A stretch of DNA of 23,357 bases from a virus, in IMG/VR virus record IMGVR_UViG_3300001041_000060, positions 1-23,357 of that record; one strand, 5' to 3'. This document shows positions 13,145-21,218 of the stretch, in pieces. The notes below the pieces were generated by a model. That model was given only the letters and a program-made list of their open reading frames with translations, was not told where the DNA came from and ran no database searches. Made by a program: the position numbers and the translations under genes. The first letter of the stretch is position 1; each line of letters starts with the position of its first letter.

Positions 13145-13468
13145 TCACCGACTACACTTAACGCTACCTCCAGCATCAATATCTCCAGACACCTTGCCAC
13201 ATCGTATACTTCCACCTGCATCAACATTTCCTCCGACATCACCACACTCTAAAGATCCTCCGACATCTACATTGCCTTTTATACTACCACTTATCTCAGC
13301 ACTTCCATCACATTTTAAAGATGCCAAATCGCCTTCAAATTTAATATTTACGTCACCTGATAAACCAGATAAAGCAACCTTTCCATCACAATATATAATT
13401 CCATTTACAACTGAAATATTATTACCACTTGTTTGGATTTTAGTTCCATTGATAATTATTGTGTTCAT
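13145..13468 (-). CDS. Beta-helix-like repeat protein with cysteine ladder
   Basis: 107 residues. After an opening typical of its kind (MNTIIINGTKIQTSGNNISV), the C-terminal two thirds is a short-period repeat of G/S-x-V/I-x-V/A-G-G, for example KGNVDVGGSLECGDVGG and VDAGGSIRCGKVSGDIDAGG. Such repeats form stacked beta-helices (DUF4097- or bactofilin-like folds). Five cysteines recur at matching positions (YC, KC, EC, RC, KC), which would stack along one face. Function unknown; an oligomerising or cell-surface scaffold is possible. AAGGAGAATG lies upstream. It is the last gene of block 3, next to the SPFH-like gene. Confidence 0.72.
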   Translation of the reverse strand: MNTIIINGTKIQTSGNNISVVNGIIYCDGKVALSGLSGDVNIKFEGDLASLKCDGSAEISGSIKGNVDVGGSLECGDVGGNVDAGGSIRCGKVSGDIDAGGSVKCSR

Positions 13469-13607: not shown

Positions 13608-14519
13608 TTATTTCCCTGCATCTGCCATTGGCAAACTAATAATTTGATTACCACCTACAACTTGAGGGTATGCACCATTCCATTTCAAAACAGTTTGATA
13701 TCTTACAAGTGCATCCGTCAAAGATGCTTGTAATACTTGATTTGCTTTTGCTTCACCTTCTGCTTTGATAAGACTTGCGTCTGCAACACCTTGAGCATCA
13801 ACTCTTGCTTTATCAGCTAATACTTTAGATTGCATCAATTCTGTTTCCATCTGTTGTAATTTTTGCTGTGCATCAACCTTTAATTGAATTGCTTTTTTGG
13901 TTTCTTCATCAGGACGAATTTCACCAAAACTAAATGTTTCAATTACCAAACCAAATGGAGTAAGTTCTTTGATTAATAATTCGTGTACTTTTAATTGAAT
14001 TTCTGTACGCTTATTTCCATATAAATCCATAACACTATATCCAGAAGTAATTGATTGAGATGCTGTTTTTATTTGTTGTTTTAAATATCCTCCAGAAATA
14101 CTTTCAATTGAAGCACCTTTGAAGCGAGTAAATATGGCAGGTAATTTATCAACATCAACATGGTATGTAAAATATGCATCAACTGAAACTGGTTTTCCTT
14201 CCATTGTTGAGGTATTGAACGAATCATCATTTGGAGAACCTTCTGTTTTTGATTGTGTTAACCATACTGTTTCAGTTGATACAGGATATTCTCTAACTGA
14301 TTTCCAAGGAGCGACTATATGCCATCCTTGTGATAGCGTATTTTCCTCTAAACCTCCACGCATGTTATAAATGATTCCTGCATGTCCTGGATTAATCTTT
14401 GTAGTTGACATTCCAAATCCTGCAAGTAAAACAACTGCTGATACTCCGGTAGCAATCAAACCTTTGGTGAATTTATTTATTTTAAAATTACTCATATCAA
14501 TATTAATATTATTTCTCAT
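13608..14519 (-). CDS. SPFH/Band 7 (prohibitin-like) membrane protein
   Basis: 303 residues. One membrane segment (about 19-37, GLIATGVSAVVLLAGFGM) is followed by an SPFH domain (INPGHAGIIYNMRGGLEENT, SQGWHIVAPWKSVREYPV, GKPVSVDAYFTYHV) and an Ala/Gln/Lys/Glu-rich coiled-coil (about 200-270, QQKLQQMETELMQSKVLADK, AEGEAKANQVLQ). This is the prohibitin layout; such proteins form ring or cage scaffolds on membranes and regulate membrane proteases or microdomains. A phage copy could shield or remodel the host membrane. Its start overlaps the stop of a 41-residue membrane protein by 1 base; GAGGAG lies upstream. The protein looks complete. Confidence 0.92.
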   Translation of the reverse strand: MRNNINIDMSNFKINKFTKGLIATGVSAVVLLAGFGMSTTKINPGHAGIIYNMRGGLEENTLSQGWHIVAPWKSVREYPVSTETVWLTQSKTEGSPNDDSFNTSTMEGKPVSVDAYFTYHVDVDKLPAIFTRFKGASIESISGGYLKQQIKTASQSITSGYSVMDLYGNKRTEIQLKVHELLIKELTPFGLVIETFSFGEIRPDEETKKAIQLKVDAQQKLQQMETELMQSKVLADKARVDAQGVADASLIKAEGEAKANQVLQASLTDALVRYQTVLKWNGAYPQVVGGNQIISLPMADAGK

Positions 14520-20199: not shown

Positions 20200-20228
20200 A
20201 TAATAACATGGGCAAGGTATTAAGTCAA
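20200..20228 (-). promoter_or_regulatory. SigA-type promoter for block 3
   Basis: On the minus strand TTGACT (20228-20223), a 17-base spacer, then TATTAT (20205-20200) preceded by TGT (extended -10). One mismatch in each hexamer, optimal spacing. Predicted start near 20193. The leader contains one TTCGAA motif (20165-20170) before the GTG at 20127. Confidence 0.82.
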
Positions 20229-20247
20229 GTATTTATTTTATAATTTG

Positions 20248-20408: not shown

Positions 20409-20600
20409 TTAATCTTCATAATTCATCTGATATAATACGTTTTCATCCACTAGAAAATCTAAGGTGTCTCCACTTACATTTGCAGGATGAATATAGAAAA
20501 CTATATTGCCATAATCATCTTTATGCGCTCTAATAGCATGATCAATTACATTATTTTTAATATTGTCTTCAAGATATTTGCTTAATGTTTTATTAGACAT
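20409..20600 (-). CDS. Small unknown protein, 63 aa
   Basis: 63 residues (MSNKTLSKYLEDNIKNNVID...), helical N-terminus then beta segments (DDYGNIVFYIHPANVSGDTL, FLVDENVLYQMNYED). Not recognised. The chosen ATG has AAGGAGGAATAAAT upstream; the in-frame ATG eight codons earlier would lie ahead of that site and is rejected. A TTCGAA motif follows three bases after its stop. Confidence 0.73.
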   Translation of the reverse strand: MSNKTLSKYLEDNIKNNVIDHAIRAHKDDYGNIVFYIHPANVSGDTLDFLVDENVLYQMNYED

Positions 20601-20626
20601 ATTTATTCCTCCTTCAACTAACATTT

Positions 20627-20833
20627 TTAACTTCCAATATTATATTTTTCTTTTATTTTAGCAATATATTTTTCAACAGTGATTTTACCATCTGCATATT
20701 GGTCAATTAAATTAACAGCATAATCACTAGGTTCTAAACCTTCAAATGATATAGATGCTTTAATACTTGATATTATATCTTCTTTACACGAATCTTCATA
20801 ACAATTTATTAATCTTCTTTTACATCTTATTAT
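20627..20833 (-). CDS. VbhA-type antitoxin domain (Fic inhibitor), orphan
   Basis: About 68 residues: a basic, Cys-containing N-terminus (RCKRRLINCYEDSC) then the VbhA-type helical domain, KEDIISSIKASISFEGLEPS followed by a helix and GKITVEKYIAKIKEKY. It carries the Fic-inhibitory motif [ST]-x-x-x-E-[GN] as S-I-S-F-E-G (20738-20755). In the known family (VbhA of the Bartonella VbhTA pair) this glutamate blocks the ATP site of a Fic AMP-transferase. No Fic motif (HPFxxGNGR) is seen in the window. AAAGGAG sits at 20841-20847 but no ATG, GTG or TTG follows in frame; ATA at 20833 is used here provisionally, and the only canonical in-frame starts (20938, 20935) are unsupported. Confidence 0.72.
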   Translation of the reverse strand: MIRCKRRLINCYEDSCKEDIISSIKASISFEGLEPSDYAVNLIDQYADGKITVEKYIAKIKEKYNIGS

Positions 20834-21036
20834 AATAATTCTCCTTTCATCAAACCAAAAGTTGTTTGCTGTGATTTTACATAATACTTTTTCCCTAAAA
20901 TATATAAAGATTTTCTTCTTTGATATTCGTCCCAACATTGTACATCACAAATTGGAATACCACGATAATTAAAATCAAACATAATTTCAGTTCCACAAAT
21001 ACAGCAAAACATTGGTTGTTTAGTAAATAGAGACAT
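20830..21036 (-). CDS. Zinc-finger-like protein, 68 aa
   Basis: 68 residues with C11-x2-C14 and C30-x3-C34 (FCCICGTEIMF, IPICDVQCWDEYQ), a treble-clef-like zinc site. The basic C-terminal half (RRKSLYILGKKYYVKSQQTT) could contact nucleic acid. Not recognised further. AAAGGAGTAATAT precedes the ATG. Its last codons hold the ribosome site of the VbhA-like gene, with a 4-base overlap or near-overlap. Confidence 0.74.
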   Translation of the reverse strand: MSLFTKQPMFCCICGTEIMFDFNYRGIPICDVQCWDEYQRRKSLYILGKKYYVKSQQTTFGLMKGELL

Positions 21037-21069
21037 ATATTACTCCTTTCTATTCTAAGAATAGTGATA

Positions 21070-21218
21070 TTATCGATAATTAATAAAACATGGTCGTGTA
21101 ATCCACTTACTATTACAATGTGACATACATTATATTTACAATGATTTTCTTTAACAATGTTCGGCTCATCGAAATGTTTCTTGCACATTTCACATAAATA
21201 TGGAAATTTTCTAATCAT
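21070..21218 (-). pseudogene. Zinc-ribbon miniprotein with probable one-base frameshift
   Basis: The ATG frame reads MIRKFPYLCEMCKKHFDEPN, then KYNVC, and continues as hydrophobic sequence through the next gene without a stop, which is atypical here. Shifting by one base near VC (around 21120-21126) gives HCNSKWITRPCFINYR and a stop at 21072, placing the end 33 bases before the next gene's ATG and restoring a CxxC ... C ... CxxC pattern. I read this as a 49-residue zinc-ribbon protein with one base lost. It may be a mutation or a sequence error. AAAGGAAG lies upstream. Confidence 0.5.

What the first reader, a model, noticed from the sequence alone, without database searches (positions are those of the whole stretch)
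20627..20833. Orphan VbhA-type antitoxin with an intact Fic-inhibitory motif in a phage accessory operon
The protein keeps the inhibitory motif [ST]-x-x-x-E-[GN] (S-I-S-F-E-G at 20738-20755) in the usual helical context, but no Fic toxin is visible in the 23 kb. Known VbhA proteins (class I Fic antitoxins) sit beside their toxin. A free phage copy could neutralise a host Fic toxin or defence, an anti-defence role. That is inference; the family assignment is from motif and context.
Basis: partly seen in the sequence, partly recalled or inferred. Interest (0 to 1): 0.65.

Follow-up and report, generated by a model that had tools for sequence, protein, structure and literature searches.

The report
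Orphan Fic-toxin antitoxin in phages
Three related bacterial viruses carry a small, selectively maintained protein that has the sequence signature and predicted fold of the antidote to Fic toxins, yet no Fic toxin was found on their contigs, so it most likely disarms a Fic toxin made by the bacterium or by a rival prophage.

Summary
The minus-strand frame 20833-20627 matches Pfam VbhA (PF18495, 9.5e-7, above its cut-off) and carries SISFEG at 20738-20755. AlphaFold models are three-helix; for the G309 orthologue the five best PDB fold matches are all VbhA/BiaA antitoxins (individual E-values weak). Two orthologues in other IMG/VR contigs (G001, 121 kb, 87% identical; G309, 40.7 kb, 60%) are also orphans. 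No Fic was found in 317 kb of five related contigs, none known to be complete. The core is under purifying selection (dN/dS 0.12-0.29). No neighbour is shared by all three copies, and sister contig G306 has the island without the gene. The closest bacterial and prophage relatives mostly sit beside, and once are fused to, a class I FicT toxin, so the predicted target is a gyrase/topoisomerase-AMPylating FicT of host or prophage. Best explanation: a phage antitoxin mimic that binds a foreign FicT and blocks AMPylation. Family membership is near certain; the anti-defence role is inference. Corrections: the gene lacks ATG/GTG/TTG (probable AUA start, shared with G001), and orphan VbhA copies also occur in bacterial genomes. 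The strategy is known (DarTG/AdfB, Dmd); I found no earlier report of one against FicTA.

The parts
20627..20833 (-). VbhA/FicA-type antitoxin, 68 aa read from the ATA at 20833 (start codon inferred); stop 20629-20627
   Evidence: PF18495 E 9.5e-7; orthologues in G001 and G309; dN/dS 0.12-0.29; predicted three-helix fold
20738..20755 (-). Fic-inhibitory motif [S/T]xxxE[G/N] (S-I-S-F-E-G), end of predicted helix 1
   Evidence: Read directly; S27, E31 and G32 identical in seven relatives; E and G invariant in ten, including one with a longer spacing
20841..20847 (-). Shine-Dalgarno-like AAAGGAG, 7 nt before the ATA; lies inside the end of the upstream gene
   Evidence: Sequence; G001 has AAAGGATGTGATT in the equivalent place
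20830..21036 (-). Upstream 68-aa cysteine-motif protein; inserted relative to G001, where its homologue lies about 44 kb away, so not an obligate partner
   Evidence: BLASTN to G001 50181-50365, 79%; no significant Pfam match
20409..20624 (-). Downstream small gene (probable start ATG 20600); not next to the antitoxin in G001 or G309, not a Fic toxin
   Evidence: no significant Pfam match

Best explanation
The gene is a genuine FicA/VbhA-family antitoxin carried alone, as a one-gene cassette in a variable island of a group of large phages. During infection it is expected to bind a class I FicT toxin made by the host or by a resident prophage. Helix 1 would enter the Fic active site and Glu31 would pair with the second arginine of the FIC motif, so ATP sits unreactively and AMPylation of gyrase/topoisomerase IV stops; by analogy with Fic-1/AntF the complex might also remove AMP already added to GyrB. 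Shown here: family, motif, predicted fold, orphan state on the contigs available, selection, and FicT partners of the nearest relatives. Inferred: binding, identity of the target, and the anti-defence purpose.
For: PF18495 matches: P0001 9.5e-7, P0002 8.4e-8, G309 copy 3.2e-7. Best PDB fold matches of the G309 model are 5eu0, 3zcb, 3shg, 3zc7 and 5nh2, all VbhA/BiaA, TMq 0.61-0.71, probability 0.96-1.00; the P0001 model also ranks 5eu0_B first. Nearest bacterial/prophage relatives sit directly upstream of FicT with HPFREGNGR (L011; L013-L015), and L068 is a FicA-FicT fusion. No Fic in the window, G001, G305, G306 or G309 (motif and tblastn scans). dN/dS 0.29, 0.19, 0.12. No neighbour common to all three copies. 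FicT inactivates topoisomerases by AMPylation (PMC5033356, PMC8401265); FicA binding can give a deAMPylase (PMC13327609); phages do use antitoxin mimics (PMC11481870).
Against: The host and its Fic content are unknown. No phage genome of the group is known to be complete, so a Fic could be encoded in the missing part. Orphan VbhA copies also occur in bacteria (L065, L067), so being alone is not proof of anti-defence. The non-ATG start of the window and G001 copies suggests low expression. No binding or inhibition was tested. The fold-match E-values are individually weak (0.07-0.5).
Confidence: 0.62

Rival explanations
1. Split toxin-antitoxin pair: the phage encodes a Fic protein in the unsequenced part of its genome and this antitoxin controls it in trans.
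For: None of the five related contigs is shown to be complete; G001 carries mostly metabolic and accessory genes and G306 seems to end before the head genes (by size and order only).
Against: No Fic in 317 kb of related phage sequence, which includes the antitoxin's own surroundings three times. FicA and FicT are adjacent or fused in most close relatives.
Confidence: 0.14
2. Decaying remnant of a FicTA module that lost its toxin, without present function.
For: Non-ATG start in the window and G001; degraded (L069) and toxin-less (L065, L067) copies exist in bacteria.
Against: dN/dS 0.12-0.29 across three phages whose synonymous divergence reaches about 0.7-0.9; the inhibitory motif is intact in all three; the frame is open; no FicT remnant was detected beside it.
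Confidence: 0.1
3. The VbhA fold has been re-used to bind something other than a Fic protein.
For: One VbhA-like hit (L029) has a downstream frame that looks ParE/RelE-like by eye (not profile-tested); small three-helix proteins can change partner.
Against: The Ser, Glu and Gly that contact the Fic active site, and the P-S-x-x-A segment after them, are kept as in FicT-linked relatives.
Confidence: 0.08
4. The target is a class II Fic of the SoFic anti-phage type rather than class I FicT; AS1, a small protein, is known to neutralise EcSofic.
For: In phage L012 the VbhA-type gene lies directly downstream of a SoFic-like Fic (PADLOC SoFic 7.8e-36). Sofic/AS1 is an anti-phage toxin-antitoxin pair (PMC12249575).
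Against: SoFic already carries its own inhibitory helix. L012 occupies the same terminase-portal site where L011 and L013 have FicA-FicT, so its FicA may be a leftover beside a newcomer. The sequence of AS1 was not available to compare.
Confidence: 0.06

Closest known systems
VbhA / FicA antitoxins of class I Fic (VbhTA of Bartonella schoenbuchensis; BiaA)
   Same: PF18495 profile, three-helix fold, [S/T]xxxE[G/N] at the end of helix 1
   Different: No toxin gene found on the phage contigs; phage-borne; probable non-ATG start in two of three copies
FicTA modules of Syntrophomonadales and of phages/prophages related to PV036453 (L011, L013-L015, L063-L068)
   Same: Nearest relatives with a known partner (about 40-50% identical over the core), same KAS-x-x-x-EGL-x-PS segment
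   Different: There FicA precedes, or is fused to, FicT; in the present phages FicT is absent
Fic-1/AntF of Pseudomonas bijieensis (PMC13327609)
   Same: Fic antitoxin with a catalytic/inhibitory glutamate (E28; by role the counterpart of E31 here, not aligned here)
   Different: A complete toxin-antitoxin pair of the bacterium itself
Phage-encoded antitoxin mimics: AdfB of ICP1 against DarT (PMC11481870), Dmd of T4, TifA against ToxIN
   Same: A phage carries a lone antitoxin-like protein (as proposed here) against a host toxin-antitoxin defence
   Different: Different toxin families; those were shown by experiment, this one is not
Sofic-AS1 (PMC12249575)
   Same: Small protein that neutralises an anti-phage Fic toxin
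   Different: AS1 is bacterial and next to its toxin; its mechanism and relation to VbhA were not tested here

Membership tests
VbhA/FicA antitoxin (PF18495) | Match to the VbhA profile above the curated cut-off | tested here: met
   9.5e-7, 29.1 vs 25.9 bits; orthologues 8.4e-8 and 3.2e-7
VbhA/FicA antitoxin (PF18495) | [S/T]xxxE[G/N] inhibitory motif at the end of helix 1 | tested here: met
   SISFEG, residues 27-32; predicted helix 14-30
VbhA/FicA antitoxin (PF18495) | Three antiparallel helices resembling VbhA/BiaA | tested here: met
   Predicted models: helices 14-30, 37-47, 53-63 for P0001 at pLDDT 70.9; G309 orthologue pLDDT 81.5 with the top five PDB matches VbhA/BiaA, but E-values 0.07-0.5
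VbhA/FicA antitoxin (PF18495) | Binds and inhibits a Fic-domain protein | not testable with these tools
   Needs co-expression or binding assay
FicTA toxin-antitoxin module | FicT toxin gene adjacent to, or fused with, the antitoxin | tested here: not met
   No Fic in window, G001, G305, G306, G309 nor by motif/tblastn scan
Phage counter-defence antitoxin mimic | Carried by a phage without its own toxin and maintained by selection | tested here: met
   Three orphan orthologues, dN/dS 0.12-0.29; caveat: the phage genomes are incomplete
Phage counter-defence antitoxin mimic | Relieves a host defence during infection | not testable with these tools
   Host unknown

The most novel reading that the evidence does not exclude
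A phage-borne FicA acts as a counter-defence protein that binds a host or prophage FicT during infection and converts it from gyrase AMPylase to deAMPylase, implying that class I FicTA modules (for example those in the terminase-portal gap of prophages) work as anti-phage defences.
Probability: 0.3. Interest if true: 0.72.

Novelty: new variant of a known kind. Interest (0 to 1): 0.45.

Why it matters
The natural role of class I FicTA modules is largely unknown. A selected, toxin-less FicA in phages would be evidence that they, or prophages carrying them, block infection, and it names a small protein and toxin partners that can be tested directly in a laboratory strain. Searches of the open full-text library showed no report of a phage-encoded FicTA antitoxin mimic.

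Tried and rejected
Sequence search of PDB with P0001 or alignment A3 gave no VbhA chain; only the fold comparison did. Weak tblastn hits in Vibrio phage sm033, Streptococcus Javan411 and Caulobacter DMCA lie in longer annotated genes or on the opposite strand to the annotated gene and were taken as chance. An L025-type VbhA found nothing in the phage collection. NCBIfam has no matching model for the protein. The upstream cysteine-motif gene and the downstream gene were considered as partners and rejected because neither accompanies the antitoxin in G001 or G309. Starting the gene at ATG 20938 was rejected: it would overlap the upstream gene by 109 bases, and G001 has an in-frame stop just before the ATT-ATA-ATA. 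Several PF18495 hits of the Bacillota survey (L032, L034-L039) are chance or short low-complexity matches without the motif. One Pfam call failed on a wrong frame and another on a coordinate slip; they affect nothing.

Full report
What was checked. The frame 20833-20627 on the minus strand translates to IIRCKRRLINCYEDSCKEDIISSIKASISFEGLEPSDYAVNLIDQYADGKITVEKYIAKIKEKYNIGS. It matches Pfam VbhA (PF18495) at 9.5e-7, 29.1 bits against a cut-off of 25.9. The motif SISFEG is at 20755-20738. The whole 23,357-base record is an IMG/VR fragment and contains no PF02661 match.

Start codon. The only ATG in frame is at 20938, and a gene from there would overlap the upstream gene by 109 bases. In G001, 87% identical, an in-frame TGA lies a few codons upstream and again only ATT-ATA-ATA is available before the conserved coding sequence. 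Both have a Shine-Dalgarno-like stretch at a suitable distance. The third orthologue (G309) starts with a normal ATG and lacks the N-terminal extension, beginning near residue 15 of the window protein. An AUA (or AUU) start in the first two is therefore the best reading, but inferred. The extension itself shows only six differences between the two phages, too few to judge selection on it.

Relatives in phages. Viral contig searches gave G001 (121 kb) and G309 (40.7 kb). Two further contigs share the replication genes of the window: DnaB 97-98% identical in protein, and the first 10.7 kb of the window 88-89% identical in DNA. These are G306, 112.8 kb, and G305, 19.4 kb. They lack the antitoxin. 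In G306 the island is covered and holds other small genes after the same zinc-ribbon gene; G305 does not reach it. No PF02661 match occurs in G001, G305/G306 or G309, and motif scans and tblastn with relatives' Fic proteins found nothing convincing (the L011 query was read in a wrong frame and does not count). The searched total of the five related contigs is about 317 kb. None is known to be complete: G001 has mostly metabolic and accessory genes, and G306 carries long tail-type genes, judged by size and order only.

Selection and cassette behaviour. Nei-Gojobori dN/dS over the 49-codon core is 0.29 (window-G001), 0.19 (window-G309) and 0.12 (G001-G309). The gene is flanked by different genes in each phage: a cysteine-motif protein upstream in the window that sits about 44 kb away in G001; a different small gene downstream in each. 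The block shared by window and G001 is essentially the antitoxin gene plus about 15-20 bases on either side. It behaves as a one-gene accessory cassette without a partner.

Relatives with a toxin. L011 (phage), L013, L014 and L015 (Bacillota genomes) have the antitoxin directly upstream of a class I FicT of about 205 residues with HPFREGNGR; NCBIfam gives VbhT as the nearest model, below its cut-off. In the order of L015 (taken to be Syntrophomonadales) 8 of 63 genomes have a FicA of this subtype: four beside FicT, one fused to FicT (L068, 278 aa), two with no Fic in about 3 kb (L065, L067) and one degraded (L069). In phage L012 the antitoxin follows a SoFic-like class II Fic. The antitoxin genes of L011, L012 and L013 lie between, or right beside, terminase and portal-type genes, a place where prophages often keep cargo (general knowledge).

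Fold. The AlphaFold model of the window protein has three helices (14-30, 37-47, 53-63) at mean pLDDT 70.9 and its best PDB match is BiaA in 5eu0. The model of the G309 orthologue is better (81.5) and its five best matches are all VbhA or BiaA chains, TMq 0.61-0.71. Each E-value alone is weak (0.07-0.5), as expected for 55 residues, but the unanimity of the top five is informative.

How it probably works. In class I Fic systems the antitoxin's first helix enters the active site and its Glu pairs with the second Arg of the FIC motif, which misplaces ATP (PMC5033356, PMC8401265). FicT toxins AMPylate and inactivate gyrase and topoisomerase IV. In Pseudomonas the Fic-1/AntF complex also removes AMP from GyrB, using Glu28 of AntF (PMC13327609). 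The phage proteins keep the motif Ser, Glu and Gly. With no own toxin found, the simplest purpose is to silence a FicT that the phage meets in the cell: chromosomal, plasmid or prophage-borne. Phage-encoded antitoxin mimics are established for other systems (DarTG/AdfB, PMC11481870). Target identity, binding and benefit are inferred.

Verdict. The finding is real and well interpreted. It is a new instance of a known strategy applied, as far as the searched literature shows, to a toxin family for which no phage antitoxin was described. Interest is moderate because the mechanism is predictable and untested.

Noticed in passing
window 20831-20836; L001 4998-5006: The antitoxin gene has no ATG/GTG/TTG in either the window or G001; ATT-ATA-ATA is conserved after a Shine-Dalgarno-like stretch, suggesting an AUA or AUU start.
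   Followed up: partly
window 20895-21218 (around 21120-21125): The zinc-ribbon gene upstream appears to have a 1-base deletion relative to G001 and G306 that destroys the second Cys pair (frameshift or assembly error).
   Followed up: partly
L068 1468-2304: Natural fusion of a FicA-type antitoxin to a class I FicT in one 278-aa protein.
   Followed up: partly
L012 4784-6156; L011 5914-6715; L013 4914-5781: Fic/FicA genes sit next to terminase and portal-type genes in related phages/prophages; in L012 a SoFic-like Fic stands in place of FicT.
   Followed up: partly
L067 1540-2338; L065 1492-1692; L069: Toxin-less or degraded FicA copies in bacterial genomes of the order of L015, L067 beside a PemK/MazF-type gene pair.
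   Followed up: partly
G001 54153-54935, 60359-62068, 64381-64797: Related phage contig encodes a tRNA-His guanylyltransferase (Thg1), a nicotinamide/nicotinate phosphoribosyltransferase and a PemK/MazF-type toxin.
   Followed up: no
L029 1453-1955: VbhA-like protein followed by a frame that looks ParE/RelE-like by eye; not profile-tested.
   Followed up: no
window 13145-13468 and 13608-14519: A bactofilin-like small protein (below Pfam cut-off) and a Band_7/SPFH protein in the phage.
   Followed up: no
window 20218-20233 (-); L007 15191-15239: TACTTGACTTAAT, promoter-like, occurs once in the window and as an inverted pair in G001.
   Followed up: no
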